Shown here piece after piece: positions 3-56,744 of a stretch of 64,000 nucleotides of DNA; the first letter of the stretch is position 1; every line of letters begins with the position of its first letter. This stretch comes from Phycisphaerae bacterium (lineage in GTDB: Bacteria; Planctomycetota; Phycisphaerae; Phycisphaerales; SM1A02). The notes under the pieces are model-generated. The model saw only the letters and a program-made list of their open reading frames with translations, made no database searches and was not told where the DNA came from. Position numbers and translations under genes: made by a program. The stretch spans positions 62,001 through 126,000 of the forward strand of contig JAEUIT010000003.1 of assembly GCA_016795035.1 (NCBI GenBank). Direction: 5' to 3'.

Positions 3-2234
3 GCACGGGCGCTCGGCGTTGCAGGCGCCGCGCTCTATGCCCGGCTCCTCGGAACGCTCGACGACGTCGGCCCCGCATGGGCCGCGATCAGCGAGGCCCG
101 GCGCTCGAAGCCCGAAGATCGCGCGATCCTCCGCGCCGCGCTCGTGACCGCGGCGCGGCTCGGCGAGGCGTCGTTGGTCGCGCCGCTTGCGGCCGATGTC
201 GCCGACGACGACGCGCTCACCCTCATCGATCTCGCCGCCGCCTATCGCTCGGTCGGCCTGATCGACAAGGGGATCTCGACCGCCGAGGCCGCAACGAAGG
301 TGAGTACGGTGGCCTCGGGCGCCTCGCCCGTCGTCGCCGCCGCGGCGCATGTCGCGCTTGCCCAGGCGCGAGCCGATTCGGCCGCGCGGACGGCGAGCGT
401 CGCCCTGGCGCAGTCCGCCGTCGAGGCCGCGACCACGGCCGTCGGACTCGATCCGTCGAACGAGGACGCGTGGACCGTCCTCGTCCTCCTTTGGCAAGCG
501 CTCAGCGGCGGCGACCGCAACGACAACACGGCGCTCCGTGCCGAAGCCGAGCGCACGCTGGAACGGCTCCAGGCCGCGATGCCGCGCGGGCCCGTCGCGC
601 GCGGCGCCGCGATCGAGCGCTGGATCGCCGGTGGCGCCGCGATCGAGGCGGCGCAGGCCGCCGCCGCGTGTTCTGCCGCCGACCTCAGCGAGTCGCGGCT
701 CCTCAAGCTTCTCGTCGGCGAACTCGTGCGCCAGCGCGCGTTCGAGACGGCGCTCGCCTATCTCGACGCCCGCCTCGCCGCGACGCCCGGCGACGCCGCC
801 GCGTGGCAACTCTGGACCGAAGCGTCGATCGCCGCCGGCCGCGCCGACCAGGCGCTTGAGCGGCTGCGCGAGCGCATGGACGGCGATCGTCGCGACCCGA
901 TCGCGGTGCGCCTCACGGAACTCGCGCTCCGGTCGCTCGACCGCGGCGAGGAAGCCGACGCCATCGCGGCGACGCGCGCGGAGTCGCTTCCCGCGTCGCC
1001 TCGGCGTTCGCTCGAGCGCGCCGCGCAGGCGCTCGCGCGGGGCGACGAGGTCACCGCCATCAAGACCCTCAATGCGGCAACGTCGAGTGTCTCCGCGTTG
1101 CAGCCGATCGAGCTCCTCGCCGCCGCCGAGCTGTCCTCGCGGGTGCGCGATCGCGTGAGCCGCAGTCCGCTCGTCGACGCGTTCGCCGGCGCGCTTATCC
1201 AAGCTGCCGCGAAGGATCCCGCGGTCGAGACCGTCGCCGTCGCGCGGGCGGCGGCGCTCATCGCGCTCGACGGCGATCCGGGCGACGATCCCGAGGGCCA
1301 GTTGCGCCGCATGATCGAGACCGCCGTCGGCCGCACGAAAGAGGTCAATGCCGGCGAGGTTCCGGCGTGGCTTGCGATCGGCCAGTCGTTCGCCGACCGC
1401 TCGCGGCACGAGGACGGCGCCGCCTTCCTCGCGGCGCTCCTGCGAAGCGAGGCGCGCATCGACACGACGGCATCGGCGCGGCTCGCGCGGGCCTGCTTCG
1501 CGCTCGATGCCGCCGCCGGCGGCGGCGCCGAGCGTTCCATCGCGATCCTCGATCTCCTTCGTTCGCGCGGCGTGCGCCCGTTCGCCCGCAACGATCGCCC
1601 CGAGAACTCCGACGCCGACGCGTTGCAGGCGCTCGCGAACCTCTACTCGCTCGTGGGCGACGACCGCGGCATGCTCGAGATCCTGCGCGAGAGCCTGAAG
1701 CGCGACCCTGATCACGCGATGAGCCTCAACAACCTCGCGTGGGACGCGCTCGAGTCGGGCGTGGTGAATCCCGAGGTGATCGACTTCGCCGAACGGGCGC
1801 ACAAAGCGAACCCGAACGACGCGTCGATCCTCGACACGGTCGGATGGTTGCGCTACCTGCAAGGCCTCGACACCGACGACGCCGGGCGCGACGGATCGAT
1901 CACGCTCCTCCGCCGCGCGGTCGATCGAAGTAACGGCCAGCCGAGCGGCGAGGTGCTCGACCATTTGGGCGACGCGCTCTGGCGCACCGGCGATCACAAG
2001 GAAGCGGTCAAGGCGTGGCAGGCCGCGCAGCGCGAGATCGAGACGAACTCGCCCAAGGATCGCATCGTCGAACGCGTCGCGGGCTACGAGCGCGCGGAGC
2101 ATGGCGTCGTCGTCATCGACGCCGAAGCGCTCTGGCGGCGCCAATACGGAAACGCGCTCGAGCGCGTGAAGGCCAAGCTCGCCGCCGTCGCGCGCGGCGA
2201 CCCGCCGCCGATCGCGACGCGCAAGGACTCGTAG
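3..2234 (+). CDS. TPR-repeat protein, 5' end cut by the window edge
   Basis: The reading frame is open to the left edge, so the N-terminus is missing; about 743 codons are visible. The protein is Ala/Arg/Asp-rich and almost entirely helical-repeat in character. The clearest tetratricopeptide-like units lie in the last 200 residues, where ALANLYSLVGD, LNNLAWDALESG, LDTVGWLRYLQG and LDHLGDALWRTGDHKEAVKAW recur at roughly TPR spacing. Such proteins act as protein-interaction scaffolds; no enzymatic domain is visible. yebC follows 58 nt downstream on the same strand. The true start and any signal peptide lie outside the window. The TPR assignment is well supported; the biological role is not known. 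Confidence 0.8.
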   Translation, partial: ARALGVAGAALYARLLGTLDDVGPAWAAISEARRSKPEDRAILRAALVTAARLGEASLVAPLAADVADDDALTLIDLAAAYRSVGLIDKGISTAEAATKVSTVASGASPVVAAAAHVALAQARADSAARTASVALAQSAVEAATTAVGLDPSNEDAWTVLVLLWQALSGGDRNDNTALRAEAERTLERLQAAMPRGPVARGAAIERWIAGGAAIEAAQAAAACSAADLSESRLLKLLVGELVRQRAFETALAYLDARLAATPGDAAAWQLWTEASIAAGRADQALERLRERMDGDRRDPIAVRLTELALRSLDRGEEADAIAATRAESLPASPRRSLERAAQALARGDEVTAIKTLNAATSSVSALQPIELLAAAELSSRVRDRVSRSPLVDAFAGALIQAAAKDPAVETVAVARAAALIALDGDPGDDPEGQLRRMIETAVGRTKEVNAGEVPAWLAIGQSFADRSRHEDGAAFLAALLRSEARIDTTASARLARACFALDAAAGGGAERSIAILDLLRSRGVRPFARNDRPENSDADALQALANLYSLVGDDRGMLEILRESLKRDPDHAMSLNNLAWDALESGVVNPEVIDFAERAHKANPNDASILDTVGWLRYLQGLDTDDAGRDGSITLLRRAVDRSNGQPSGEVLDHLGDALWRTGDHKEAVKAWQAAQREIETNSPKDRIVERVAGYERAEHGVVVIDAEALWRRQYGNALERVKAKLAAVARGDPPPIATRKDS

Positions 2235-2292
2235 CGAAGCTCTTCTCTCTTTCCATTCTCCCTTTCCATTTTCCTCTTCTTCTCTCCCCCAC

Positions 2293-3079: not shown

Positions 3080-3230
3080 GCCTCGTTGCGCAGCGGGCGC
3101 TCCCTGACTCCTCCCCCACGCTTGCGTGGGGGAGGTGCCGGCGCAGCCGGCGGTGGGGGTGCTTCACCTGCAACGACGAGTCGAGAATCACGAGAGCGGT
3201 GACGGACACGGAGACAGACGACGGCTGCCC
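3080..3230. repeat. Solo copy of the CCCCCACG...CGTGGGGG hairpin element
   Basis: This intergenic element has a perfect hairpin (CCCCCACG, loop CTTG, CGTGGGGG) followed by a GCCGGC-GCA-GCCGGC palindrome, a GGTGGGGGTGCTTC block and one perfect copy of CTGCAACGNNGAG (3168-3180). Downstream similarity to the 10.0 kb array continues (ACGGAGACAGACGA near 3208), so the element is about 150 bp. It lies between yebC and acyP and contains no credible gene. Confidence 0.75.
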
Positions 3231-3564: not shown

Positions 3565-4096
3565 GGTCGTGGTTCGACCCGTGCCCGTCGCCGACGCCTC
3601 CGCGTTGCAGGCGCTCCGCCTCTCGTCGTTGCAGGCCGAGCCCGACGCCTTCTGCGCGTCGCCCGACGACGACAAGTTCCGCGACCTCGCGTTCGTGCGC
3701 GAGAGCCTCGCCGACACCGGTCCGCGCGTGACCTTCGGCGCCTATCGCGACACCGGCGACGGGGAGCGTCTCGTCGGCATGCTCGGGCTCATCCGAAACG
3801 GCGGCAAGCGCGCGCACGTCGCGTTCGTCTGGGGCATGTACGTCGACCCGTCGGCGCGGGGCGGCGGCGCCGGCCGCGCGCTCGTGCGCGCCGCGATCGC
3901 ACGTGCTCGCACGTGGGAGGGCGTCCGCTTCATCGAACTCTCGGTCAATAGCGCGATGATCCCGGCGCGCACGCTCTACGAGTCGGCGGGCTTCGTCGCC
4001 TGGGGTCGCGACGCCGACTCCATGCGCGTCGACGGTCGATCGATCGAGATGACGCATATGAAGCTCGATCTTGAGCGTCGTGATGTGACGGTGTGA
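3530..4096 (+). CDS. GNAT-family N-acetyltransferase
   Basis: A 188-residue protein with the GNAT layout: N-terminal VVVRPVPVADASALQALRL, a central strand region LVGMLGLIRNGGKRAHVAFVWGMYVDPSARGGGAGRALVRAAIARA containing the acetyl-CoA pyrophosphate-binding R/GxxGxG/A-like segment (ARGGGAGRAL), and the C-terminal IELSVNSAMIPARTLYESAGF block. It transfers an acetyl group from acetyl-CoA to an unknown amine substrate. The ATG at 3530 is preferred over an upstream one because the conserved fold starts just after it. It overlaps acyP by 35 nt in another frame, so the two are probably one transcription unit. Two perfect CTGCAACGNNGAG copies (reverse orientation) lie within the first 35 codons. Confidence 0.85.
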   Translation: MSSQPSPSAAGEVVVRPVPVADASALQALRLSSLQAEPDAFCASPDDDKFRDLAFVRESLADTGPRVTFGAYRDTGDGERLVGMLGLIRNGGKRAHVAFVWGMYVDPSARGGGAGRALVRAAIARARTWEGVRFIELSVNSAMIPARTLYESAGFVAWGRDADSMRVDGRSIEMTHMKLDLERRDVTV

Positions 4097-6324: not shown

Positions 6325-6900
6325 ATGTCGTTCGCCCTTCCGTGCCGCCTGGCCCTGGTCACCGTCCTACTCTCGAGCGTCGGGTGCACCTCGCACACCG
6401 AGACGTTCGAGGGGAAGTCGCGCGAGCAAGTCTGGACCGCGATGGTCCGCGCCGCCGAGAACCCGGTCTACAGCGACTGGCACGTGATCGAGAATGACGC
6501 GTGGGCGTACGACGCCGACAGCCGCATCGAGGTGTGGCGGCTCCTGCGGCGCTACAACGACAAGCAGAACCAATGGGCGCGGCTCGAAGACAGCGAGTGG
6601 CTCTTCACGATCGTCCTCCTCGACACCGATCCGCCCTCGGCCACGTTCGACGTGCGGTCGATGTGCGTCCCGAGCCACGGCTGGGAGCAACGCGAGAACT
6701 ACTTCAAGCAGGTCTGGGATCTCCTCGGCGGACCGAATGCGATGACGCCGCCGCCGGCGCCGTCCGCGCCTGAGCCCGCCGCTCCCACCGCCGCCTCCAA
6801 TGTGGCGCCGACACCCGCGCCTGCAACGCCGAGCGGCGCAGAACCTGCGCCTGCAACGCCGAGCTCACCGGAAAAGCCGCCGGTCGACCTTCCCGAGTGA
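6325..6900 (+). CDS. Putative lipoprotein, Pro/Ala-rich tail
   Basis: A 191-residue protein starting MSFALPCRLALVTVLLSSVGCTS, a short signal peptide ending in a weak lipobox (SVGC), so it is probably lipid-anchored. The middle (residues 25-135) is a compact domain with no recognised family (HTETFEGKSREQVWTAMVRAAENP...). The last 55 residues are a low-complexity Pro/Ala/Thr linker holding two copies of the CTGCAACGCCGAG motif. The ATG at 6325 is chosen because it begins the signal peptide and has a -10-like GATACT six bases upstream. Another lipoprotein gene follows 39 nt downstream, so they may be co-expressed. Function unknown. Confidence 0.75.
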   Translation: MSFALPCRLALVTVLLSSVGCTSHTETFEGKSREQVWTAMVRAAENPVYSDWHVIENDAWAYDADSRIEVWRLLRRYNDKQNQWARLEDSEWLFTIVLLDTDPPSATFDVRSMCVPSHGWEQRENYFKQVWDLLGGPNAMTPPPAPSAPEPAAPTAASNVAPTPAPATPSGAEPAPATPSSPEKPPVDLPE

Positions 6901-9814: not shown

Positions 9815-10440
9815 GCGAGCGCACGCGACGCGTGGTCTTGCTGCGCGGCGGGCGCACTTCTACTCGTCCACCACGCGACGCGTGGACCTTGCTGCGCGGC
9901 CGGCGCCCTCGCAATCCTCCCCCACGATTCGTGGGCTCGCCGCGCAGGCGGCGCTCTCGCGTTCCTCCCCCACGTTTCGTGGGCTCGCCGCGCAGGCGGC
10001 GCTCTCGCGTTCCTCCCCCACGTTTCGTGGGGGAGGTGCCGGCGCAGCCGGCGGTGGGGGCGCTTCGCCTGCAACGCGGAGTTCCGAGATAGGAAAGCGG
10101 CGACCGAGACGATTCGAGTGCGCGGAGACAAGAAGAGAGCCGAGACGGAGACGGAGACAGACGAAGGCGGCCCCCTCCGTCGTCGCCGCGCGACGCCACC
10201 TCCCCCGACTCGCAGAGTCGGGGGAGGAGTTTGTTCTGCGCCGGCGCTCTCGCGTTCCTCCTCCACGCGAAGCGTGGGCCTCGCCGCGCAGCCGGCGCCC
10301 TCGCAATCCTCCCCCACGTTTCGTGGGCCCGCCGCGCAGGCGGCGCTCTCGCGTTCCTCCCCCACGCGAAGCGTGGGGGAGGTGCCGGCGCAGCCGGCGG
10401 TGGGGGTGCTTCGCCTGCAACGATGAGAGCGCCACGCACG
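9815..10440. repeat. Tandem array of about 50-bp hairpin repeats
   Basis: The 768-nt gap between icd and the next gene is filled with degenerate units: CCTCCCCCACG, short loop, CGTGGG, then a GCCGCGCAGGCGGC-type palindrome and CTCTCGCGTT. Units start near 9822, 9880, 9917, 9965, 10013, 10201, 10258, 10309 and 10358. Stems stay paired while their sequence varies: ACG-TTT-CGT, ACGC-GAA-GCGT, GACTC-GCA-GAGTC. Two long units (10013, 10358) end in GGTGGGGG...CTTCGCCTGCAACG and carry the dispersed 13-mer. A non-repeat stretch, about 10085-10190, resembles the sequence after the solo element at 3.2 kb. Open frames here are by-products of the repeats. Confidence 0.85.
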
Positions 10441-10485
10441 CTCCAAACCTGCAACAGAGAACGCGTGCCTTCTCGAGACGCGCGG

Positions 10486-12131: not shown

Positions 12132-13372
12132 TCCCTCCGCCGCCACGCGCGGAGCGGCAAGAGCGGGTCGAGAAGCCACACGACGAGAAGCGTGATCGCC
12201 CCGTAGAAGCCGACATCGAGCGCGAATCCCCGCGGCAGCACGTGGAGCGGAAGAAACCGCGCGAGGCTCTGGTCGCGGCCGGCGTCGAGCGTCGGCAACC
12301 CGTCGGGGTTCGCGCGCGTCTCGAGGACGATCGCGTCGGACACGCGAATCGACTCGGGAATGGCGCGTCCCTTCGCGTCGAACTCCGCCGATGTTCGGGC
12401 CGCGAGCGCGGGCCACGGCCAGCCGCGCAGTTCGACGAACGCTCGATGCGGCGACGCGATCGCTTCGAGCGTGATCTCGTCCGGGAGCGGCGACATCGCG
12501 AGCCAATCGTGGTCGAGGGCGTCAGGCGCGGGCGGCGGATGCACCATGCACGATTCGGCGATCGGATCCCACGCGACGCGCGTGGCGCCGCGCTTTGACT
12601 TCAGGAGAAGTCGGCCGCTTCCGAACCCGATCACGTCCTTCTCGAAGAACGCATGCGACTCGGCGTCGTTGTACGCACCGGCCCACCAGGCGACGGCGAA
12701 GGTGCCGACGACGCCGCCTGCAACGCCGAGCGCGAGGAGGCGGACGAGCGACGACCAGCGCCACGCGATCGTGCGCTGGAGATGAGCGCGGTACGAGAGC
12801 GCCATAAAGGCGAGCGCCGTGAAGAGCGCGACGTCCGCCGCGAATCCGCCGGCGAGCGGCCGCAACGGGAGGAGCAGCGTTCCAGGTTCGTGGCGGCGAT
12901 CGAGGAGCGACCGTGGCGCGATGAGCCCGCCGACGGCAATGGGGCCCTCACCGTCCGCTCGCGTGAACGAGAACGCTTCGGCGGCGCGGAACGGCCATCC
13001 GGCGCGAAGATGTTCCGCGCGGCGCACGTCGCCGTCGGCGAGGGCGCGGAACGCGGGCGAGAGCCCGGCGCGCCGCGCGGTGTCGTCGTCAATCGGCGTG
13101 CGGCCCGACTCGACGCGCCCAGACTCGACGCGCCCCGATTCGACGCGCCACGTATCGCGCGTCGAGTCGCGCTCGACGACGACAAACGGCAACTCTCTGT
13201 TGCTGGCGTCGTGCGGCAGCGGACCGTTGGCGCGCTGCGCGACCGGATGCACGTGCGCGTCGCGGGCGCCTGCGAGGATGAAGAAGACGGTCGCCGCGAG
13301 GCCGAACGCGAACGCGATCGCGAGGCGCCGGTAGGGGCGCGGACGAGCGGATGGAGTCGTCGGCGTGGTCAC
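12128..13372 (-). CDS. Membrane protein with a VESGR tandem repeat
   Basis: A 414-residue protein taken from a GTG at 13372 (VTTPTTPSARPRPYRRLAIAFAFGLAATVFFILAGA), which places a membrane helix at residues 14-33. The outer region holds three exact RVESG repeats from a 15-bp tandem near 13095-13145. A helix at about 200-220 (FAADVALFTALAFMALSY), another at 235-260 (LLALGVAGGVVGTFAVAWWAGA) and a last at the C-terminus (DVGFYGAITLLVVWLLDPLLPL) make four or so membrane spans. The long upstream extension in the same frame overlaps the divergent gene at 13428 and was rejected. No family is recognised. The start is uncertain because no clear Shine-Dalgarno is visible. Confidence 0.65.
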   Translation of the reverse strand: MTTPTTPSARPRPYRRLAIAFAFGLAATVFFILAGARDAHVHPVAQRANGPLPHDASNRELPFVVVERDSTRDTWRVESGRVESGRVESGRTPIDDDTARRAGLSPAFRALADGDVRRAEHLRAGWPFRAAEAFSFTRADGEGPIAVGGLIAPRSLLDRRHEPGTLLLPLRPLAGGFAADVALFTALAFMALSYRAHLQRTIAWRWSSLVRLLALGVAGGVVGTFAVAWWAGAYNDAESHAFFEKDVIGFGSGRLLLKSKRGATRVAWDPIAESCMVHPPPAPDALDHDWLAMSPLPDEITLEAIASPHRAFVELRGWPWPALAARTSAEFDAKGRAIPESIRVSDAIVLETRANPDGLPTLDAGRDQSLARFLPLHVLPRGFALDVGFYGAITLLVVWLLDPLLPLRAWRRRD

Positions 13373-14342: not shown

Positions 14343-14962
14343 TGCAGGCGAAGCGATTGGCCGAGGTTCGGAAGCCCACGGTCGCCGTGCCGCGCGAGCG
14401 GTCGCCGCGCGCGATCGTCGACGGCATCGAGATCGTCGAACTGCGCGTACGCACGCTCGACGAACTCTTCCACCCGCTCGATCCCTCGCCGATCGCGCGG
14501 CGCGACCTCTCGGAAACCGCGGCCGACTACCTCTACACCGAGTTGCGCGACGTCTCCGGCGACTTCGGCGTGCGCGTGGTCGTGCATCTGCCCGACGCCG
14601 AGATGGCGCACGCCGACGCCGTCGTCGCCGCGATCCGACGGCACTTCGCCTGGTCGGCCGTCGCGACGCGCCAGGCGATGCACCGGCTGCGTCGCCTTGG
14701 GCTTCTGTCGCTCGCGATCGGACTTCTCGCCGTTGCAGGCCTGATCGGCGTCGCGCAGCTCCTCGTGCGCAGCTACGAGCGCACGTTTGTCTCGACGCTC
14801 GCCGAGAGCATCACGATCATCGCGTGGGTGATCCTCTGGCGGCCGGTCGAAGTGCTGCTCTTCGACTGGTGGCCGCTGCGCACGGACATCGCGCTGTACG
14901 AGCGCCTCGCGGCGCTCGACATCGAATGTCGTGCGGCAAGCCAAGGTTCGCCTGCCGCGTGA
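14342..14962 (+). CDS. Small membrane protein coupled to the VTT protein
   Basis: A 206-residue protein whose ATG overlaps the upstream stop (TGATG), indicating translational coupling with the VTT-domain gene. The N-terminal 110 residues are soluble and acidic/basic mixed (VVHLPDAEMAHADAVVAAIRRHF). Two membrane helices follow (LLSLAIGLLAVAGLIGVAQLLV and STLAESITIIAWVILWRPVEVLLF), then an amphipathic tail. No family is recognised. The coupling suggests a role tied to its partner's membrane function. It converges on efp with a 21-nt gap. Confidence 0.75.
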   Translation: MQAKRLAEVRKPTVAVPRERSPRAIVDGIEIVELRVRTLDELFHPLDPSPIARRDLSETAADYLYTELRDVSGDFGVRVVVHLPDAEMAHADAVVAAIRRHFAWSAVATRQAMHRLRRLGLLSLAIGLLAVAGLIGVAQLLVRSYERTFVSTLAESITIIAWVILWRPVEVLLFDWWPLRTDIALYERLAALDIECRAASQGSPAA

Positions 14963-16555: not shown

Positions 16556-18873
<2,318 letters not shown>

Positions 18874-19001
18874 GCGGTCCATCGCGCGGCTCGATCCGGC
18901 ATCGGGCGGCGACACGAACTCCCGTCCGATGCCGCGATCATGGCGCTGCCCGCGCAGCGGCAACGGAGAGTCCGCGAGGGTCCACGACGCCAGAACGACG
19001 G

Positions 19002-19030
19002 AAAAAATACCCCCGGCACGAGGCCGGGGG
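19002..19030 (-). terminator. Intrinsic terminator (minus strand)
   Basis: On the minus strand, CCCCCGGC and GCCGGGGG form an 8-bp stem around a 5-nt loop (plus-strand 19010-19030). It is followed by TATTTTTT (plus-strand A-run 19002-19007). No minus-strand protein gene ends here, so it marks the end of a non-coding transcript. Confidence 0.85.
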
Positions 19031-21215: not shown

Positions 21216-22055
21216 TCAGCGACCGCGGAGCGCCGCGACGCGCTTCTGCGTCGGCGGGTGCGAGGCGAAGAGGTTCGTCAGGGTCGACATCCCGCTGAAC
21301 GGCTCGATGATGAAGAGGTTGTTCATCGCCGGGTTCGGCTGGTGGAGCGGGATGCGCTTCGAGTAGGCCTCGAGCTTCTGCAACGCGGAGACGAGGCCGT
21401 CGGGCGATCCCGCGATCGACGCGCCGTCGGCGTCGGCCACGTACTCGCGCGACCGGCTGATCATCGCCTTCAGGATCGCCGCGCCGAACGCGCCGAGCAG
21501 GATGACGCCGAGTGCCGCGAACGGATGGCCTCCTTCGCGGTTATTCCCGCCGCCGCCGAAGAGGAATGCCATCTGGGCGAGCATCGAGAAGAGGCCGGCG
21601 ACGGTGGCGGCGATCGTCGACGTGAGCGTGTCGCGGTTCTTGATGTGCGCGAGCTCGTGGGCCATGACGCCTTCGATCTCGCGGCGATCAAGCAGTTGCA
21701 GCGCGCCTTCAGTGATCGCGACGGCGGCGTTCTTCGGGTTCCGTCCGGTGGCGAACGCGTTCGGGGCGTCGTGCGGGCAGACGTAGACGCGGGGCATCGG
21801 AAGGCCGGCGCGCTCCGAGAGGCGGCGGACCATCGCGACGAGTTCGGGGGCGGTGCGCTCGTCGACCTGGCGGCCTTGCATCGACGCGACGGCGATCTTG
21901 TCGGAGAAGAACCAGGCGCCGAAATTCATGAGGACGGCGATGACGCCGCCGACGAGCATGCCTTGGACGCCCCAGAAGGAGCCGACGAAGACGATGAGGC
22001 CAAAGAGGGCGGCGAGGAGCACCGCAGTCTTGAGGTTGTTCGTGAATGCGACCAT
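21216..22055 (-). CDS. htpX: Membrane zinc metalloprotease HtpX (M48B)
   Basis: A 279-residue protein of normal HtpX length. Two N-terminal membrane helices (AVLLAALFGLIVFVGSFWG, MLVGGVIAVLMNFGAWFF) precede the HExxH zinc site HELAH (133-137) and a second pair of helices. The third zinc ligand is probably the Glu in SREYVADADGASI. NAFATGRNPKNAAVAITEG is a conserved family block. HtpX degrades misfolded inner-membrane proteins as part of envelope stress control, alongside FtsH in E. coli. The start follows GTTACCT-type sequence without an obvious Shine-Dalgarno. It is transcribed away from the TauE-type gene region with a 136-nt gap. Confidence 0.95.
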   Translation of the reverse strand: MVAFTNNLKTAVLLAALFGLIVFVGSFWGVQGMLVGGVIAVLMNFGAWFFSDKIAVASMQGRQVDERTAPELVAMVRRLSERAGLPMPRVYVCPHDAPNAFATGRNPKNAAVAITEGALQLLDRREIEGVMAHELAHIKNRDTLTSTIAATVAGLFSMLAQMAFLFGGGGNNREGGHPFAALGVILLGAFGAAILKAMISRSREYVADADGASIAGSPDGLVSALQKLEAYSKRIPLHQPNPAMNNLFIIEPFSGMSTLTNLFASHPPTQKRVAALRGR

Positions 22056-24012: not shown

Positions 24013-24780
24013 TCAGGGCACGCGCGTCGCCATCGTGAGCCGCGCGACATGCGCGAGCGTCGCGACGCCATCCGTCGCGTGGCGCCGAAAGGCGGCGCGA
24101 AGCTCCTCGAGTCGTGCCGAACGTTCGGGCTCGGTGCGCGGGAAGTAGCTCGCGCTTGTCGCGCGGCCGACCGCACCTTCCTCGTCGAGCGTCTGCGGAC
24201 TGTCGAAGTCATGCACGACCGCGTCGCGGAAAAGCGATGACGCCCGCAGCGGCGCGTCGAGGCTCTCGCGTCCGGCCCGTGCGGAAGGATCGAGCGACTC
24301 CGCGGCGCTCACGACGATGCGCGTGTAGTCGTCGGTGAAGCCGCCGTCGGCAACGCGGAGATTCCAGAGGAGCGCCGCGCGGCCGCCGGGCCGCAGGATG
24401 CGATGGAACTCCGCCAGCGCCCGCGGCGGATCGAACCAGTGAAACGCCTGCGCCGCAAGCACGACGTCGACCGAGCCGTCGGCGAGTCCCGTCGCCTCGC
24501 CCGTGCCTTGGCGAAACTCGATCGGCGGTCCGTCGCCGCCCGAACGCTCGCGCGCCTGCCGCAGCATGTCCTGGCTCGGGTCGATGCCGATGACGCGCGC
24601 GCCTGCAACGCGGAGAAGTCGCGACGAGATGCCGGTGCCGCATCCGACGTCGGCGACGAGCGGCGAGGCGCCGAGCCCCGGCAGCAACGTGGAGAAGACG
24701 GCGGCCGGATACGTCGGGCGGAAGCGGTCGTACGTCGAGGCGAGACCCTCGAAGCGAGTGAGCGTGGCGCGGTCGTCCAT
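24013..24780 (-). CDS. Class I SAM-dependent methyltransferase
   Basis: A 255-residue Methyltransf_11-type enzyme. The SAM-binding glycine motif is LVADVGCGTGISSRLL, followed by ARVIGIDPSQDMLRQA, the FRQGTGEATGLADGSVDVVLAAQAFHWFDPPRALAEFHRILRPGG block typical of UbiE/small-molecule methyltransferases, and a C-terminal cap. The substrate is unknown. The ATG at 24780 has no Shine-Dalgarno, but a TACGCT hexamer sits 6 nt upstream. It is divergent from yifB with about 100 nt between them, so the promoters nearly overlap. Confidence 0.92.
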   Translation of the reverse strand: MDDRATLTRFEGLASTYDRFRPTYPAAVFSTLLPGLGASPLVADVGCGTGISSRLLRVAGARVIGIDPSQDMLRQARERSGGDGPPIEFRQGTGEATGLADGSVDVVLAAQAFHWFDPPRALAEFHRILRPGGRAALLWNLRVADGGFTDDYTRIVVSAAESLDPSARAGRESLDAPLRASSLFRDAVVHDFDSPQTLDEEGAVGRATSASYFPRTEPERSARLEELRAAFRRHATDGVATLAHVARLTMATRVP

Positions 24781-24792: not shown

Positions 24793-24868
24793 GAGGTGCG
24801 CGCGACATCGGAAAAATCCGAGGCACTGCGCAAATGTCGGTTGTGGCGGGGGTGCCCGATTTCGGCGG

Positions 24869-24874
24869 TAGTCT
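24869..24874 (+). promoter_or_regulatory. Putative -10 hexamer TAGTCT, leaderless GTG start
   Basis: TAGTCT ends 7 nt before the GTG at 24882 that aligns with the family N-terminus (ISRIATFVLAGIE). This supports that start over the ATG at 24834, which lies upstream of the hexamer. Confidence 0.4.
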
Positions 24875-24881
24875 CCCGCGC

Positions 24882-34537: not shown

Positions 34538-35542
34538 ATGACGCAGAGACGAGGTCGGTGCGGACATTGTGCGAAGGGCGGGCGCGCGGTGCTCAGGTCG
34601 GCCGTCGCGGCGATCGCGACGGCTGCAACGGCGAGCGTCGCCTCCGCGGACTCCGTGGTGTATGCCTCGGACTTCAACGCGAAGAAGCTCGTCACCATCG
34701 ATCCGACGACCGGCGCGGTCGCCGAAGTCGGTCCCCTTGATCCTGGGGCGGGAATCGTCGTCGACCTCGCGTCGTTCGGCGGCCGCCTCTTCGGTCTCGT
34801 CTCCGAGTATCCGACGCAGTCACGCCTCATCGAGATCGATCCGGCGACGGCCGCGATCCTCTCCGACCATGTGATCACCGTCAACGGCGCCGTCGCGCCG
34901 AATGCGATCGAGGCGATGGCTGCAACGCCGAGCGGCGAGCTCGTCGTGTCGATCTGGCGGCCTGGCGCGGCGAGCATCGCATCGTCGAACACCATCGCCA
35001 CGGTCGGGCTCGACGGTGCGGCCAGCGCCTTCGTGGAGTACGGCGCGGACGCCGACTTCGACGGACTCGGCCTCGATCCCGCGAGCGGCGTCTTCGTCGG
35101 CGTCAATCGCGAGCCGGGACCGGGCGCCGACTACGTCGACCTTCTGAACGTCACGTATCCGGGCGGCGCGTCGTCGCTCATCGTGCACCTTTCGTTCAGC
35201 CCGACCTTCAATGCGGTCGACGACGCGATCGTCCGCGGCGATCACATCGTCACGCTCGACACGTTGACGAAGCGCGTGAATCTCCACGACCGGAGGACTG
35301 GCGTCGTGACGTCGTTTGTCCAGTATCCGGCGGCGTGGTCGCTGTACGCCGGCATCGCGGACGTCGAGACGTCGACGCCATGTCTCGGCGACCTCGACGG
35401 CGACGGCAGCGTCGGCGGAAGCGACCTCGGCACGCTGTTAGGCCAATGGGGCGGCGCCGGCAACGCGGACTTTGACGGAAGCGGCACCGTCGGCGGCGCG
35501 GACCTGGGCACGCTCCTCGGGGCGTGGGGGCCATGCCCATGA
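34538..35542 (+). CDS. Secreted beta-propeller-like protein with C-terminal EF-hand modules
   Basis: A 334-residue exported protein. A GAGGAG Shine-Dalgarno precedes the ATG at 34538. The signal peptide is [16 protein letters not shown]. The body has NHL/WD-like repeats ([59 protein letters not shown]). The last 60 residues carry two dockerin-like EF-hand modules, [23 protein letters not shown] and [25 protein letters not shown], ending in the WG-x-CP tail shared with three other proteins here. Such tails are widespread in Phycisphaerae and may bind calcium or serve in surface sorting. Two perfect 13-mer motifs lie in the gene. Confidence 0.87.
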
Positions 35543-35569: not shown

Positions 35570-36507
35570 TCAGCGAAGGTTGGCGATCTCGGCCTCGGTG
35601 ATCGCAACATTGCCGTCGACGATCTTCTTGGCCAGGAGCTCGTTGAGCGGCGCGAGAATCGTGAAGTGGTCGTGTCCGGGGGCGGCGAAGAACCGGATGC
35701 GCGGGTTGCGGCTCTCGTCCTTCATCAGCTGGATCGATTCCCAGTTGCCGTTGCGGGCGCCCTCGATCACGTAGGTGTCGCGTGCGACGCCGTCGAGCCA
35801 GTGGATCGGCGAACGGAGTTCCATCTCGCGCTCGTTCGACGGATCGCAGTAGGTGAAGGCGCCACCGTAGTGCTCGAGCGCCGCGACCGGGCCGAGCGCG
35901 AACACGGCCTGGAACCGGTCGGAGGTGGCTGCAACGAGGAGCGCCAACGTTCCGCCGGTGCTGTGCCCCCGAGATAGATGCGGTTCGGGTCGACGTACGG
36001 GAGCGCCGCGAGATGGTCGCGGGCCGCGAGCACGTCGTCGACTTCGCCGAGGAAGCCCTCGCGCGCGCCGGGGTTGTCGTTGCCGCCGCGAAGCGACGGA
36101 TACATCGTGACGATTCCGGCCTCGCGGAACGCCGAGGCCGTCTGGTCGTTGGAGCGGTCGCTAGGAGACCAGACGTCGCCGATCGAATTCGAGTCGCCGC
36201 CCGTGATCCAGACGATCGCAGGGTGCTTGACGCCATCGCCGGGATCGCGCGTCACGTACGCCGACAGTTGGCCGCTCGGCGCCGCATAGCGCACGAGGTC
36301 GAGCCCGCTCGAGGCGGGCGGCATCTCCGCCGGACCTTCCTGGTCGCCTCGGCTCACGAGCTTCGTCGTGAACCCGCGGCGCGCCGCGGCCAGCGTCTCG
36401 GCTTGGCCTGCAGTCGACGACGAGCCGCGCGGAGGCGTCTCCGCGCCGCAGCCGACGGGAAGGGCGAGGAGAACGGAGAGTGCGAGCAGGACGGTGCGTT
36501 GCAGCAT
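35570..36507 (-). pseudogene. Alpha/beta-hydrolase (prolyl-oligopeptidase-like), frameshifted at the nucleophile
   Basis: Two overlapping minus-strand frames together make one lipoprotein hydrolase of about 312 residues. The N-part starts MLQRTVLLALSVLLALPVGCGAE (lipobox LPVGC) and runs through PAIVWITGGDSNSIGDVW to YVDPNRIYLGG. The C-part begins THSTGG-like and continues LALLVAATSDRFQAVFALGP to GHDHFTIL (catalytic His). They join at a 5-C run (plus 35966-35970): one extra G on the coding strand would restore LGGHSTGGTLALL, the GxSxG elbow. Either a real inactivating frameshift or a homopolymer sequencing error. The rest of the gene shows no decay, so error or very recent loss is likely. Confidence 0.8.
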
Positions 36508-39218: not shown

Positions 39219-39264
39219 CCACCCCGGCTGCAACGCCGAGATGACGGCTCCGACAACAGAGAAC

Positions 39265-39326: not shown

Positions 39327-40457
39327 TCAGTTCACGCAGTCGACGTCGAAGATGAGCTGGAAGTTGCCGGTGGCGCCCTGGAAGCCCGAGACGCGGACGT
39401 AGAAGGTGTCGGACGAGCTGCCGATCAGCGAGACGCGAGAGCGGCGGAAGTTGCCGTCGAGGGCGCAGTCGGGATCGGAGAAGTCGTCGTTGCAGGCGAT
39501 CTCGGCGCCGCTCGGCAGGCAGTTCGTGAAGACCGAGATCGTCGTGTCGAAATCCGTGCTCGGATGGCACGTCGAGATCGTGAGCTCGCCGTCGCACGGC
39601 ATGGAGAAGCGATACCACTCGTCGAGCGTGTCGCCGTTCGCGCAGCTCGACTGGTCGGCCTGGATCCACGTGTCGCCTTCGTTCGTGCCGGGAATCTCGA
39701 TGTACTGCGTCGACGGCACGATGTGCGCGAGGTCGCAGCGGTCGCCGCGCTTGATGGGCCGCACGGTCAGGATGCCGGGGCCCGCGTCGGTGCCGCCGAT
39801 CCCCTTGTATCCGCCGACGCGGATGTTCATGCACTGGCCTTCGTAGGCCGGCACTTCGACGAAGCTCTGCAACGTGGAGTTGGCGTCGTCGTCGCAGGCG
39901 AGGAGGACGGCGTTCGGCGACACGCCCGGGCAGCCGCAGGCCCCGGCGATGATGTTGCTGTAGACGCCGAGCACCGTGTCGAACGACGAGTCGTACGTAT
40001 GCACGATCAGCGCGCCGGTGTACGGCATCTTGTACTGGTACCACACGTCCTTGCCGATCGACGCGACGTCGTTGTCGTCGCCGCAGGTCGCCGGGAAGGG
40101 AAGGTCGCTATCGGTGGCCGCGTTGTTGCAGAACTCGACGAACGTGGAGGTGCCTTCGAGATCTTCGGCGTTGATGCAGTTGTCGTTCGAGGGCGGCGTG
40201 CAGGGACCCCAGGCGCCGAGCAGGATGCCGAGGTCGGCGCCGTCGGTCGTGCCGCTGCCGTCGAAGTCCGTGTTGCCGGATCCGCCCCAGCCACCGAGGA
40301 GGATGCCGAGGTCGCTGCCGGCGGTCATGCCGTCGTAGTCGAGGTCGGTGACGCAGGGGCAGGTCGGGCTTCCGGTCGCGCCGGCCATGGCGACGCTCGT
40401 GACGAACGAGGCAAGGAGGGCGGTGGCGGACGACCGGGCGTAGGACGAAGCGAACAT
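39327..40457 (-). CDS. Secreted protein with N-terminal EF-hand modules and PPC-like domains
   Basis: A 376-residue exported protein (ATG at 40457, GGAG upstream). Right after the signal peptide (ALLASFVTSVAMA) come two DxDGD...DLGILLGxWG modules ([48 protein letters not shown]), which in other proteins here sit at the C-terminus. Then follow two PPC-like (pre-peptidase C-terminal) beta domains (DVWYQYKMPYTGALIVHTYDSSFDTVLGVY; DEWYRFSMPCDGELTISTCHPSTDFDTTISVF), each with disulfide cysteines. Such domains bind carbohydrates or act as spacers in secreted enzymes, but no enzyme domain is attached. Function unknown. Confidence 0.85.
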   Translation of the reverse strand: MFASSYARSSATALLASFVTSVAMAGATGSPTCPCVTDLDYDGMTAGSDLGILLGGWGGSGNTDFDGSGTTDGADLGILLGAWGPCTPPSNDNCINAEDLEGTSTFVEFCNNAATDSDLPFPATCGDDNDVASIGKDVWYQYKMPYTGALIVHTYDSSFDTVLGVYSNIIAGACGCPGVSPNAVLLACDDDANSTLQSFVEVPAYEGQCMNIRVGGYKGIGGTDAGPGILTVRPIKRGDRCDLAHIVPSTQYIEIPGTNEGDTWIQADQSSCANGDTLDEWYRFSMPCDGELTISTCHPSTDFDTTISVFTNCLPSGAEIACNDDFSDPDCALDGNFRRSRVSLIGSSSDTFYVRVSGFQGATGNFQLIFDVDCVN

Positions 40458-43707: not shown

Positions 43708-43748
43708 CGTTCGAGCGTGTCTCGGCGTTGCAGCCAACGGGCGTGGCG

Positions 43749-47969: not shown

Positions 47970-48285
47970 TCAGGGGCGGCGCGGGGCGGGCATCGTCGGC
48001 GGCGGGAGTCGCCCCGTCTCGACCTCGGATTGCCACTCGGCAACGCTGAGGCAATCGCTCGCGGCGGCGATGTCGTGGCGGCCGAGGCGGCGGAGCATGT
48101 CGAGCATCCGGCCCTTCGTCCACGCGTAGTGCGCGAGGAGGATGTCGATCGGGTCGGAAGACCAGTCTGCCGGCGCCTTCGTCAGGGGAATCTCCGCGTT
48201 GCAGCGCGTCCTGCGCGAGGCCGTTCGGGACCTCGAGCTGCACCTCGAGTTTCGTTTCCTTCGCGCCGATCGTGAGGTAGTTGAT
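47970..48285 (-). pseudogene. Rearranged remnant: putA fragment joined to an internally deleted dinB
   Basis: On the minus strand, 48211-48285 reads INYLTIGAKETKLEVQLEVPNGLAQ, homologous to the PutA segment ISEYVAIGAKEGTLEVQLEVPSGLAQ. It breaks off just before the motif CTGCAACGCGGAG (48192-48204). A DinB N-terminus follows (TKAPADWSSDPIDILLAHYAWTKGRMLD), joined directly to the DinB C-terminus (MLRRLGRHDIAAASDCLSVAEWQSEVETG). About 130 residues are missing between them compared with the intact dinB at 50298-50891. The intact GTG start is CTG here. The last 80 nt are nearly identical to the intact copy, so the duplication is recent. Confidence 0.85.
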
Positions 48286-48393: not shown

Positions 48394-49983
48394 CTAACGG
48401 CCGACGTCCTGCAGGACGAGATAACGCAGGTCATCGAGCCCTGGGCCGAACTGGCCGCCGTCGTCCCGGCCGTTCGCCCCCCGGGAGTAGAGGATCACCG
48501 CTCCGTCCCGCCGAAGCGCCCGCACGCGTTCGTCGCCCGAGCCGAAGGGATCGCGAGGCAACAGGGCATCGGTGCCGTTACTAGTCGCCGTGGTTCGTAG
48601 TGCCACCACTGCGCGACGGAGGTCGGCGCTGATCGACGTCGCACGAGCAAGCTGTGCCGCGAAGCGGACATTCTGCCGAGCCGATCGGACGAGGACGGCG
48701 CGGTCGAGGTCGCGCTCCTCGTCGAGCGCCGGAGCGTCGAGCTCGCCCATCGCCAGTCGCGCCTTTTCGCGGTCGAGTCCGGCGAGCTGCGTGGGGAGAT
48801 ACCAGAGGCGAAGGACGGCGTATCGCGCGCGAGTCGGGACCGACACCGGGCGGCGATTCCCATTGGACGCGTCAAGGTCTCTGGCCAGCTCCTCGAGGAG
48901 TTGCCACTCGCAGGCAGCGAGGTCGAAGCGGCATGCGGCGCGCGCGCGTTCCACCAACGCATCGTCAAAGGCGCGATCGAAGAGACGGGACCCCAGGTCG
49001 GGAGTTCCAGGGGGATCGTCCACGGGAATCTGAGACGCGATCGCCGCGATCGTTTCCGTCACGAGCCTCCGAAGCCCGATGGCAGTGAGGAGATGCCATG
49101 TCGTGGGCGTCGCCGCGAGATCCTCCGCGATCTGATCGACCATGAGAAGACGCCGGACCGCTCCCTCGCGATCGCCATGGTGGGCATCCACTCTCGCGGC
49201 GATCGACGCCAGGCGAGCGGCATCGAAGATCCACCGGAGGTCGGCGTCTGTGTCGAAGGCGTCGGGCGCCGCGAGATCGGAGCCGAACGTCGCCGAGGGA
49301 TCCTCGGCCATCGCCGCGAGCGCCTGCAACGCGGAGGCCGTTTCGCGCACGAGCGGTTCGAAGGCTCCGACATCGGCGTCGTTGAACGGGAGGAAATGCT
49401 CGAGACGGGCGGACGCGTCCTCAGGCAGGGATGCGACGATGTCGTCGAGTCGGGCGATGCCTGGCTCAAGGCGCTCGCGCACGGATGCATACGTCGCGCC
49501 GGCGGACGAGCCTCCTGGAATCGACGCCGCCAGTGCGGTGCGCGTGGCCACGAGCTGCGCGCGGCGTTCGGCGATGTCGTCGAGGCTCGCCCGGTTGACT
49601 GCGCCGATAGACGCTCCGACGCCGACCAAGCCGATCGCGAACGCCGCGAGGAGCGCCGAGAATCGCCACGATCGGCCGCGTCGGAACTCCGTCCCGGGCG
49701 TGCGGCGCCACCCGCGGACGAGGACGATGGCGGACCCGACGAGGGCGAGCGCACCGACGGCGAGGAGCCCGTCACGCACGTGGAAGTCGACGTGCGTCTT
49801 CCGCGCGGCGACCCACGCGACGGCAGTGGCCGTGCCCCAGAGGAGAAACGGCAGCGGAACCAGCAGGATGAGGATGGGGAGAGACCCATGTCCTCGGCGT
49901 GCCGCCAGGGCCACGCTCCCCGCGACTCCCACGAGGATCGTCAAGACCGTGGCGGCGACGAGCGCGATGGCGGGGATCGACAT
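48394..49983 (-). CDS. Membrane protein with GspG-like C-terminal tail (paralog B)
   Basis: A 529-residue protein with three N-terminal membrane helices (IALVAATVLTILVGVAGSVALAA, LPILILLVPLPFLLWGTATAVAWVAA, GLLAVGALALVGSAIVLV) plus one more (ALLAAFAIGLVGVGASIGAV). A helical outer domain follows, and the tail LPRDPFGSGDERVRALRRDGAVILYSRGANGRDDGGQ...LRYLVLQDVGR aligns well with paralog A at 41967-43538. It lies between the DinB remnant and intact dinB, so the duplicated block surrounds it. No family is recognised beyond the pseudopilin-like tail. Confidence 0.8.
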   Translation of the reverse strand: MSIPAIALVAATVLTILVGVAGSVALAARRGHGSLPILILLVPLPFLLWGTATAVAWVAARKTHVDFHVRDGLLAVGALALVGSAIVLVRGWRRTPGTEFRRGRSWRFSALLAAFAIGLVGVGASIGAVNRASLDDIAERRAQLVATRTALAASIPGGSSAGATYASVRERLEPGIARLDDIVASLPEDASARLEHFLPFNDADVGAFEPLVRETASALQALAAMAEDPSATFGSDLAAPDAFDTDADLRWIFDAARLASIAARVDAHHGDREGAVRRLLMVDQIAEDLAATPTTWHLLTAIGLRRLVTETIAAIASQIPVDDPPGTPDLGSRLFDRAFDDALVERARAACRFDLAACEWQLLEELARDLDASNGNRRPVSVPTRARYAVLRLWYLPTQLAGLDREKARLAMGELDAPALDEERDLDRAVLVRSARQNVRFAAQLARATSISADLRRAVVALRTTATSNGTDALLPRDPFGSGDERVRALRRDGAVILYSRGANGRDDGGQFGPGLDDLRYLVLQDVGR

Positions 49984-50891: not shown

Positions 50892-50936
50892 GGGAATCTC
50901 CGCGTTGCAGCCCCTCGTCGGCCGGGCCCGGGCGGC

Positions 50937-55095: not shown

Positions 55096-55205
55096 GGATT
55101 CAGGAGTCAGGAGTCAGGAGTCAGTGGGGGAAATGCAAAGAGAGCTTCGAGGTTTCGGTGCATGCACCCTGAACCCTCAACCCTGAACCCTCAACCCTCA
55201 ACCCT
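55096..55205. repeat. Tandem repeats between convergent genes
   Basis: Right after the stop at 55095, four AGGAGTC-type units (55098-55123) occur. Then 55167-55205 is an (ACCCTGAACCCTCA)n run. These are the same two repeat types seen at 26.44 kb and 4.1 kb. They sit between the hydrolase gene (+) and the glycosyltransferase gene (-). Confidence 0.8.
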
Positions 55206-55211
55206 TTCCAC

Positions 55212-56744
55212 TCACTTCTTCCCCGACCTCATCGCCGCCTCGTACGACTGGATGCAGCGCGTCGCGGCGCCGTCCCAGGTGATGCCGCGCACTTCGAACA
55301 TGCTGCCTTCGCGGAGCGCCCGCGAGAGCGGGGGATGGCGAAGGACGGCCACGATCTTGTTCGCCATGTCTTCGATATCCCAGAAGTCGACCTTGAGCGC
55401 ATGCATCAGCACTTCGCTCACGCCGCTCGACTTTGAGATGAGGACGGGCACGTTGTGCGAGATCGCCTCGAGCGGCGCGATGCCGAACGGCTCGCTCACG
55501 CTCGGCATCACGTAGAGATCGGCGAGCGCGAACACGCGCGCGATGTCCTTGCCGCGGAGGAAGCCGGTGAAGAGCACCTTGTGGCCGATGCCGAGCTGCG
55601 CGGCCATCTCGATCATGCGCGCGGCCTGGTCGCCCGAGCCTGCAACGACGAACTTCACGTCGCTCATGACTTCGAGCACGCGCTTCGCGGCCATCACGAA
55701 GTACTCGGGACCCTTCTGCAGCGTGATGCGGCCGAAATACAGCACGATCTTGTCGCGCGTGTGAATCGGCTGGATGCCGTAGTCGTGCGGATCGAGGTCG
55801 ACGCCGTTGTAGACGACGTCGATCTTGTTCGGGTTCACGCCGTAGCGGTTCACGCAGACGTTCTTCGTCAGCATGCTGACCGCGATGATCCGCGCCGCGC
55901 CCCACATGCCGCGACGCTCGATCGAGTAGACCTGCTGGTTCGGATGCTCGCCGGAACGGTCGAACTCGGTCGAGTGGACGTGGACGATGAGCGGCTTGCC
56001 CGTCAGCTTCGACAGCGCGAGCCCGGCGGGATAGGTGAGCCAGTCGTGGGCGTGAATGACGTCGAACTCGCGGTCGCGGCAGGCATCGACCGCAAAGCGC
56101 GCGTAACGGTCGGCGGCGCCGATGAGATCGCCGCCGTAGTCGGCGATGCCCTCGCGCGAGGCGTGGTCGCCGCCCGTCGGACCCGCCTCCGGCAACGCGG
56201 AGAGGAGCGCGGCGTCGACGTCGGAGACGGAGCGCCCGCCGAACGCGCCGGCTGCAACGAGGAATTTCAGCCGTTCGACGGTGATGCCGCCGTCCTCGCG
56301 GATGCGTTCGATGAGCTGTCGGGTGGTCGGCGAGAGTTCGGTCTTCGTCCGATCGCCGTACACCGAGGGATAGGTGCCTGCGATGCTCACGAAGTCCACG
56401 CTCGTGTGCGAGCGCTCGGACTCCCGCGCGGGCAGGAGGCGCTCGACCGCCTCTTCGACGGTGGTCGTGATCGGCCCTTCCGGCGTCTCGATGACGAAGT
56501 GCTGCGCCCGCGGCGGCGGGGGCGGCGCGGGTCTCGGCGTTGCAGCCGCGCGGGAGGCGGCGCGGGGGCTCACGAGGTCGACGTGCGACGCGTGCGTCTC
56601 CTCGACCGACTTCGGAAGGACGAACGTGACCTTCACGCCGGCCCGATCGAGCGCCTTCGTGAGGCCGTAGCAGGCCGTGCCGAGCCCGCCCGTGATGAAC
56701 GGGGGAAACTCCCAGCCGAGCATGAGAACGCGCGGGGGTCGCAT
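55212..56744 (-). CDS. GT4/GT5-type glycosyltransferase (glycogen-synthase-like)
   Basis: A 510-residue protein starting VLMLGWEFPPFITGGLGTACYGLTKAL, the N-terminal nucleotide-sugar loop of glycogen/starch synthase-like enzymes. The C-terminal Rossmann half has VLYFGRITLQKGPEYFVMAAK, a sugar-nucleotide segment VVAGSGDQAARMIEMA, FLRGKDIARVFALADLYVMPSVSEPFGIAPLEAISHNVPVLISKSSG with the E-x7-E signature. It probably makes or modifies a glucan. A central insert (EETHASHVDLVS...IRED) is unusual in length. It begins 4 nt after the stop of the gene at 56749, so both are one operon. Confidence 0.93.
   Translation of the reverse strand: MRPPRVLMLGWEFPPFITGGLGTACYGLTKALDRAGVKVTFVLPKSVEETHASHVDLVSPRAASRAAATPRPAPPPPPRAQHFVIETPEGPITTTVEEAVERLLPARESERSHTSVDFVSIAGTYPSVYGDRTKTELSPTTRQLIERIREDGGITVERLKFLVAAGAFGGRSVSDVDAALLSALPEAGPTGGDHASREGIADYGGDLIGAADRYARFAVDACRDREFDVIHAHDWLTYPAGLALSKLTGKPLIVHVHSTEFDRSGEHPNQQVYSIERRGMWGAARIIAVSMLTKNVCVNRYGVNPNKIDVVYNGVDLDPHDYGIQPIHTRDKIVLYFGRITLQKGPEYFVMAAKRVLEVMSDVKFVVAGSGDQAARMIEMAAQLGIGHKVLFTGFLRGKDIARVFALADLYVMPSVSEPFGIAPLEAISHNVPVLISKSSGVSEVLMHALKVDFWDIEDMANKIVAVLRHPPLSRALREGSMFEVRGITWDGAATRCIQSYEAAMRSGKK

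What the first reader, a model, noticed from the sequence alone, without database searches (positions are those of the whole stretch)
12..56545. A 13-base motif (CTGCAACGNNGAG) is scattered through the window in coding and non-coding DNA
I found at least 23 perfect copies by eye on both strands, plus many near matches. With about 68% GC, random chance would give roughly 0.04 copies in 64 kb (hand estimate from 11 fixed bases). In genes it is read in all three frames (SALQ, RVA, AAT), so conservation is on DNA, not protein. It also sits at the end of the hairpin repeats and at a putA/dinB recombination junction. Comparable known signals are cyanobacterial HIP1 and the DNA uptake sequences of Neisseria and Haemophilus. 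A role in uptake, methylation, chromosome organisation or mutation bias is possible; none is shown.
Basis: partly seen in the sequence, partly recalled or inferred. Interest (0 to 1): 0.78.

Follow-up and report, generated by a model that had tools for sequence, protein, structure and literature searches.

The report
Uptake-signal-like DNA motif in a planctomycete
One uncultured planctomycete has rewritten its genes and spacers about 1,650 times to carry the same 13-letter DNA word, which looks like the self-recognition tag some bacteria use when taking up DNA and would be a third, independent case if that is confirmed.

Summary
The window has 25 perfect copies of CTGCAACGNNGAG (0.06 expected). 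The whole draft genome (4.86 Mb, Phycisphaerales-like) has 1,645 against 26 for the reversed control. No other genome searched in its phylum (902 by handle) exceeds 10, including the one other genome of its genus (6).

The unit is c-G-S-CTGCAACG-NS-GAG-(not G), with no inserted element around it. Synonymous codons are pushed to make it (GTT-GCA pairs 33-fold over expectation; 208 of 350 peptide windows able to encode it do so, 2 of 43 in the congener). Amino acids were changed too, at poorly conserved sites. Strand bias is at most marginal and spacing is random. A surface-polysaccharide cluster is a motif desert, but so is one core-type stretch. Transformation and pilus genes are present, also in relatives without the motif.

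This is the distribution expected of a DNA uptake sequence spread by biased uptake and recombination. Uptake and a receptor were not shown. A 2025 paper names only Neisseriaceae and Pasteurellaceae as families with such signals.

The parts
12..24 (-). motif copy CTGCAACGCCGAG (coding, antisense)
1091..1103 (-). motif copy CTGCAACGCGGAG (coding, antisense)
3168..3180 (+). motif copy, intergenic, just after the hairpins of repeat D8
3598..3610 (-). motif copy (coding antisense, SALQ)
3622..3634 (-). motif copy (coding antisense, SSLQ)
6821..6833 (+). motif copy (coding sense, PATPS)
6851..6863 (+). motif copy (coding sense, PATPS)
10069..10081 (+). motif copy, intergenic, just after the hairpins of repeat D8
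10415..10427 (+). motif copy, intergenic, just after the hairpins of repeat D8
12718..12730 (+). motif copy (coding antisense, LGVAG)
14726..14738 (-). motif copy (coding antisense, LAVAG)
21378..21390 (+). motif copy in an htpX-like gene (VSALQ; G001 homologue ASALR)
24603..24615 (+). motif copy in a methyltransferase-like gene (LRVAG; G001 homologue differs)
25932..25944 (-). motif copy inside comM (yifB): CTC CTC GTT GCA GCC, where G001 has CTC CTC GTG GCG GCG for the same LLVAA
32074..32086 (+). motif copy, intergenic
34623..34635 (+). motif copy (coding sense, AATAS)
34920..34932 (+). motif copy (coding sense, AATPS)
35929..35941 (+). motif copy (coding antisense, LLVAA near the predicted start of a gene)
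39228..39240 (+). motif copy, intergenic
39867..39879 (+). motif copy (coding antisense, STLQ)
43721..43733 (-). motif copy, intergenic, before a terminator-like hairpin
48192..48204 (-). motif copy in duplicated block D10
49324..49336 (+). motif copy (coding antisense, SALQ)
50898..50910 (-). motif copy in duplicated block D10, beside a PutA-like gene
56533..56545 (-). motif copy (coding sense, AATPR, in a glycosyltransferase-like gene)
24834..26411 (+). comM (YifB-family Mg chelatase-like ATPase); its role in transformation is recalled; homologues occur in genomes without the motif

Best explanation
The motif is most likely a species-specific DNA uptake sequence. Inferred mechanism: a surface receptor (probably a type IV pilus minor pilin, not identified) binds extracellular DNA that carries about 17 bp, c-G-S-CTGCAACG-N-S-GAG-(not G). 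The pilus and ComEA/ComEC carry it in, and DprA/RecA recombine it. Because fragments with better matches enter more often, alleles with the motif replace alleles without it. Copies then accumulate by point substitution and recombination at tolerant places, in both orientations, in genes and spacers, until protein function stops them. Shown: the over-representation, the graded consensus, the rewriting of codons and amino acids, the poorly conserved positions, a desert in one surface-polysaccharide cluster, and the presence of transformation genes. Inferred: uptake, the receptor and the drive itself.
For: Genome-wide excess of 1,645 against 26 control. Density relative to G001, the same-genus genome, rises with flank match: ratio 0.6-1.2 at scores 1-5, then 2.4, 5.2, 23 and over 100 (G001 has none) at scores 6 to 10; at score 8 or more GCAACG sites are 635 against 10 per Mb, while seven control cores give 14-66 against 2-32. 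Flanks outside the extended motif carry at most 0.18 bits per position, so it is not an inserted element. Synonymous reshuffle predicts 2.95 coding copies, 208 observed. Peptide windows able to encode the motif do so in 115/200, 33/38, 48/99, 4/5 and 8/8 cases by register (208 of 350), in G001 2 of 43; windows of the commonest register are 274 against 53 per Mb, so amino acids changed too. Identity to G001 homologues inside the motif: 43 of 110 residues, permutation mean 58, one-sided P 0.0048, 22 sites. 29 of 115 LxVA sites lie in the first 40 codons, 11.8 expected. One orientation dominates in genes, 148:60, as reported for DUS/USS (PMC2346458). Longest relaxed-motif gap 16.4 kb (simulated mean 9.1; 0 of 200 as long), in a polysaccharide cluster of typical codon usage; uptake sequences are under-represented in newly acquired and in constrained segments (PMC7811141; PMC2397512). 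ComEC, DprA, PilT family, secretins, HHH_3 (ComEA-like) and ComM found.
Against: The same genes occur in G001, and ComEC in 37 of the 41 genomes searched (G000 included), so they say nothing specific. A second desert is not foreign-looking: 14 kb with IMP dehydrogenase and pilus ATPase genes has 0 exact and 1 relaxed copy against 4.8 and 10.8 expected (P 0.0003 for the relaxed motif, one of nine extra stretches); protein constraint may explain it. The polysaccharide cluster's foreign origin is inferred, and its gap ends in a cysteinyl-tRNA synthetase gene. No receptor was identified; five of ten G000 pilin-like proteins compared have matches in the G001 pilus regions. In Neisseriaceae and Pasteurellaceae the signal is shared by many species; here not even the congener has it. 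No culture, uptake data or second strain is at hand.
Confidence: 0.6

Rival explanations
1. HIP1-like site: a DNA methyltransferase or methyl-directed (or otherwise sequence-specific) repair process creates and keeps the motif; no uptake is involved.
For: HIP1 in cyanobacteria also reaches very high density, and its one-base deviants are biased to the ends of the word (PMC4390886, passages); here deviants also sit mainly at positions 0, 1 and 12. The one-genome pattern resembles the alternate HIPs of single cyanobacteria described there.
Against: The motif is not palindromic and needs 11 to 17 positions. GCAACG sites with poor flanks are no commoner than in G001 (ratios 0.6-1.2 at scores 1 to 5), which a short methyltransferase site would not give. 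Methyltransferases were not surveyed.
Confidence: 0.16
2. Binding site of a chromosome-organising or recombination protein (Chi-like, KOPS-like or a nucleoid protein), selected in place.
For: About one copy per 2.9 kb genome-wide. A weak excess of + copies where G exceeds C: 66+/41- against 70+/72- (Fisher P 0.055).
Against: Chi and KOPS are recalled as shorter and strongly strand-biased; here 854 against 791 by contig strand and no significant skew link. Using most available peptides and changing amino acids exceeds what a modest number of binding sites would need. Not enriched in the congener.
Confidence: 0.12
3. A dispersed short mobile or repeat element whose end is the motif.
For: Three window copies follow the hairpins of repeat D8.
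Against: Flanks of 132 copies show little information outside the extended motif. 208 of 249 copies are inside predicted genes, and at 19 of 22 sites aligned to G001 the homologue has residues at all motif codons, without a gap.
Confidence: 0.03
4. Codon or peptide usage artefact (for example signal peptides rich in LLVAA).
For: 29 of 115 LxVA copies are in the first 40 codons.
Against: GTT and GCA are rare codons (932 of 16,645 Val, 1,529 of 26,760 Ala), yet GTT-GCA pairs are 227 against 6.8 expected; reshuffled genes give 2.95 copies; 40 of 249 copies are intergenic; the motif is read in five registers (all).
Confidence: 0.01

Closest known systems
Neisseriaceae DUS (DNA uptake sequence; receptor ComP)
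   Same: Many copies of a 10-12 bp non-palindromic word, permissive positions, one orientation favoured in genes, absent from recently acquired genes (PMC3630211, PMC2346458, PMC2397512).
   Different: Different sequence (DUS ATGCCGTCTGAA), different phylum, one genome only instead of a family of dialects, uptake and receptor unproven, and no sign that inverted pairs are preferred (8 exact pairs under 150 bp against 12.4 expected; 11 of 31 relaxed pairs within 60 bp are inverted).
Pasteurellaceae USS (uptake signal sequence)
   Same: Strong inner core plus weaker extended flanks (a 17-position extended USS is used in PMC12616744); evolves by point mutation (PMC7811141).
   Different: USS is AAGTGCGGT or ACAAGCGGT; here c-G-S-CTGCAACG-NS-GAG in a 68% GC genome of another phylum.
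Cyanobacterial HIP1 and alternate HIPs
   Same: Iterated word specific to a clade or genome, deviants biased to the ends.
   Different: HIP1 is an 8-bp palindrome tied to methyltransferases (PMC4390886); this motif is not palindromic and is longer and gapped.
Chi / KOPS orientation signals (recalled)
   Same: Short non-palindromic iterated word.
   Different: Those are strand-biased (recalled); here at most a marginal bias (P 0.055).

Membership tests
DNA uptake sequences (DUS/USS, as a functional kind) | Massive genome-wide over-representation of one non-palindromic word | tested here: met
   1,645 against 26 control
DNA uptake sequences (DUS/USS, as a functional kind) | Copies made by substitution, not insertion, at permissive sites | tested here: met
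   no flank conservation; identity 43/110 against 58 expected at 22 sites; synonymous change in comM
DNA uptake sequences (DUS/USS, as a functional kind) | No replication-strand bias | tested here: inconclusive
   66/41 against 70/72, P 0.055; GC skew used as proxy, draft genome
DNA uptake sequences (DUS/USS, as a functional kind) | Under-represented in newly acquired DNA | tested here: inconclusive
   one polysaccharide cluster is a significant desert, foreign origin inferred; a core-type stretch is motif-poor too
DNA uptake sequences (DUS/USS, as a functional kind) | Transformation machinery present | tested here: met
   equally present in G001, which lacks the enrichment
DNA uptake sequences (DUS/USS, as a functional kind) | Word promotes uptake of DNA and has a specific receptor | not testable with these tools
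   Needs uptake or binding assays
DNA uptake sequences (DUS/USS, as a functional kind) | Typical, not defining: shared with near relatives | tested here: not met
   congener G001 6 copies; other family members at most 10
Neisseriaceae DUS or Pasteurellaceae USS by sequence | Word matches a known dialect | tested here: not met
   Consensus against the words printed in PMC12616744 and PMC2346458
HIP1 / alternate HIP | Palindromic word | tested here: not met
   Consensus is not palindromic
HIP1 / alternate HIP | Cognate methyltransferase | not tested
   No methylation data; methyltransferases not surveyed
Chi / KOPS | Strong leading-strand bias (recalled) | tested here: inconclusive
   no strong bias; marginal P 0.055
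Dispersed repeat / MITE | Conserved sequence beyond the word | tested here: not met
   logo; in the window the three D8 copies and the two D10 copies do share longer repeats

The most novel reading that the evidence does not exclude
The motif is driven through this genome by a sequence-specific process other than DNA uptake, for example a repair or gene-conversion system with an 11-17 bp preference that turns near matches into matches strongly enough to rewrite codons and proteins. It would have arisen within one genus. That would be a new kind of genome-wide molecular drive.
Probability: 0.13. Interest if true: 0.95.

Novelty: new variant of a known kind. Interest (0 to 1): 0.82.

Why it matters
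Discrimination of self DNA by short enriched uptake words is said to be known only from Neisseriaceae and Pasteurellaceae (PMC12616744, passages). A third, unrelated case in Planctomycetota would show that uptake specificity can evolve again in a distant phylum. Because the other genome of the genus lacks the enrichment, the case may catch its origin (or its loss) in progress. It would also imply frequent transformation in a group for which the held library has no paper naming both (0 papers with Planctomycet and DNA uptake sequence). It would offer a natural test of whether such words spread by drive alone, since a sister species without it is available.

Tried and rejected
Chance or codon use: rejected. 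Insertion element: rejected for most copies. A shared dialect in relatives: none of the other genomes searched is enriched. A different dialect in relatives: an 8-mer search in 30 relatives (40 kb each) and 281 kb of G001 found no comparable dispersed word. Two relatives (G007, G051) had words of z 13.1, but these fell in 6 and 9 of the 500-bp bins, as local repeats do, against 17 to 35 for G000's word. G095's top word was CGTTGCAG (z 7.2); four of its seven sites, within 1.7 kb, read by eye as DCNxDG/DCNxN-like peptides, so I take it as protein-driven. Even spacing: not found (CV 1.10 against 0.99 simulated). Preferred inverted pairs: not found. A G000-specific pilin as receptor: no conclusion; of 11 pilin-like proteins found I compared 10, and 5 matched the G001 pilus regions. 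Motif density by GC3 quartile: no clear trend. Homologues under 35% identity were dropped before the identity counts.
Full report
What is there. CTGCAACGNNGAG occurs 25 times in the window on both strands (0.06 expected) and 1,645 times in the whole 4.86-Mb genome, against 26 for the reversed control. The 8-base part CTGCAACG alone occurs 3,298 times against 675 control; in the same-genus genome G001 it occurs 317 times against 409 control.

The consensus. From 132 copies in 396 kb: position -3 C 81/132, -2 G 103, -1 C or G 129, then CTGCAACG, N, C or G (115), GAG, then not G (118). Single-base variants are common at positions 0, 1 and 12 and rare at GCAACG and GA. Flanks further out carry at most 0.18 bits per position. 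Scoring every GCAACG by ten flank positions, G000 and G001 (405 kb) have similar densities at scores 1 to 5 (ratio 0.6-1.2). The ratio then climbs to 2.4, 5.2 and 23 at scores 6 to 8, and at 9 and 10 G000 has 277 sites and G001 none. Seven control cores with the same flank score of 8 or more are also somewhat commoner in G000 than in G001, 14-66 against 2-32 per Mb, where GCAACG is 635 against 10 (all). This graded rise is what a binding preference would leave.

It is written over the genes. In 729 kb there are 249 copies: 208 in predicted genes (148 antisense, 60 sense), 40 intergenic and 1 partial. Reshuffling synonymous codons predicts 2.95 coding copies (largest of 20 runs, 6). The commonest form reads CTC-NNC-GTT-GCA-G, using the rare codons GTT and GCA: 227 GTT-GCA pairs against 6.8 expected (all). 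Of peptide windows that could encode the motif, 115/200, 33/38, 48/99, 4/5 and 8/8 do so by register, 208 of 350 in all; in G001 (281 kb) 2 of 43. Such windows are also denser in G000 (274 against 53 per Mb for LxVA), so the protein sequence itself has been bent. An example in the window: comM reads CTC CTC GTT GCA GCC where G001 has CTC CTC GTG GCG GCG, both LLVAA; the htpX-like gene reads VSALQ where G001 has ASALR.

Where it is tolerated. At 22 aligned sites, identity to G001 homologues inside the motif is 43 of 110 residues against a permutation mean of 58 (one-sided P 0.0048; homologues under 35% identity dropped). 29 of 115 LxVA sites lie in the first 40 codons, 11.8 expected, by eye often in hydrophobic leader-like stretches. 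The longest gap of the exact motif in the 729 kb (23.2 kb, contig C47, 17 predicted genes) was sampled with 10 proteins: two glycosyltransferases, a Polysacc_synt_3 protein, asparagine synthase, UDP-sugar dehydrogenase, an O-antigen ligase domain, an epimerase, a formyltransferase domain, one without a match, and at the edge a cysteinyl-tRNA synthetase. For the relaxed motif the longest gap is 16.4 kb there, against a simulated mean of 9.1 kb (0 of 200 as long), and the cluster's codon usage is like the rest. That it is foreign is inferred from gene content. Against a simple reading, one of nine further stretches, L213 (14 kb, contig C80), is also poor: 0 exact and 1 relaxed copy against 4.8 and 10.8 expected (P 0.0003 for the relaxed motif, before correction), and it holds core-type genes such as IMP dehydrogenase and two pilus ATPases; L210, another pilus region, has 1 exact copy against 6.8. 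Protein constraint may account for these. The nine stretches together have 36 copies in 153 kb, about 52 expected at the density.

Orientation and spacing. There are 854 forward and 791 reverse copies by contig. Against local GC skew, 66+/41- and 70+/72- (Fisher P 0.055), so a weak strand effect is not excluded. Spacing is random (CV 1.10 against 0.99 simulated), and close pairs are not in excess (8 under 150 bp against 12.4).

Who else has it. The pattern was counted in 60 relatives, 180 family members, 396 class members and 391 phylum members besides G000. The sets overlap; by handle numbers they make 902 other genomes. The class and phylum samples are even draws from larger groups and were searched with the motif plus A or T, of which G000 has 996 copies. 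No other genome exceeds 10 copies, or 8. In 40-kb samples of 30 relatives and in G001 no other dispersed word of this strength was found; in eight G000 samples of 35-40 kb CGTTGCAG was among the four listed words in 7 and led in 5, with z 13-22.

Machinery. G000 has ComEC, DprA, PilT-family ATPases, secretins, an HHH_3 ComEA-like protein, ComM in the window and pilin-like proteins. G001 has ComEC, DprA, PilT, secretin and HHH_3 matches and a comM homologue too, so these genes allow transformation but do not explain the motif.

Interpretation. The set of properties is the one described for uptake sequences: evolution by point mutation rather than insertion, accumulation limited by gene function, scarcity in newly acquired and in strongly constrained segments (PMC7811141, passages), permissive core-genome positions and absence from recently acquired genes (PMC2397512, abstract and passages), one orientation favoured in genes without a general orientation bias (PMC2346458, first of three parts). 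I therefore commit to an uptake sequence spread by biased uptake and recombination, at 0.60. It is not a member of the DUS or USS families by sequence. The claim that it works like one rests on its distribution; uptake and receptor are untested. [quoted passage not shown] My searches found no planctomycete case: one search gave 0 papers; one search gave 10, none on this topic by title; some searches were seen as listings. The string CTGCAACG occurs in 555 papers, of which 20 were listed and none is about an uptake motif by title. PMC3630211 and PMC4390886 were seen as passages.

Limits. The gene calls are my own rough ones. The genome is a draft, 94% complete. Only one congener is in the set, so gain in G000 and loss in G001 cannot be told apart, although the absence elsewhere in the family favours gain. 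About 882 of 4,858 kb were read as sequence. Methyltransferases and RecBCD/AddAB were not surveyed.

Noticed in passing
window 26428-26484 and 55068-55124; also elsewhere in G000: GGAGTCA heptamer tandem repeats (CAGGAGTCAG 63 copies in 396 kb), a second over-represented family unrelated to the motif.
   Followed up: no
window 3122-3210, 10023-10111, 10369-10457: Hairpin repeat family D8 (GTGGGGGAGG...GCCGGCGCAGCCGGC...) whose three copies each carry the motif just after the hairpins.
   Followed up: partly
window 57755-58116 and 29653-29995: About 28-nt tandem and scattered repeats with CACTGGCCAGACCAGTGCGC-like palindromes (D1, D3, D7, D12, D14).
   Followed up: no
window 48009-48222 and 50334-50928: Duplicated blocks (90-95% alike) on the downstream side of the PutA-like gene, carrying two motif copies (D10, D13).
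   Followed up: no
G000 contig C47:204776-227943 (L197, L198): Surface-polysaccharide gene cluster with almost no motif copies although its codon usage is typical.
   Followed up: partly
G000 contig C80:1-14000 (L213): Core-type stretch (IMP dehydrogenase, two pilus ATPases, FAD enzyme) that is also nearly free of the motif.
   Followed up: partly
G001 L018-L032: G001 has its own repeats CGAACTGTTAG and CGAATCGTTA (12-15 copies in 281 kb), of unknown nature.
   Followed up: no
L146 (relative G095), 18035-19694: CTGCAACG copies here read by eye as DCNxDG-like peptides, a protein-driven look-alike of the motif.
   Followed up: partly
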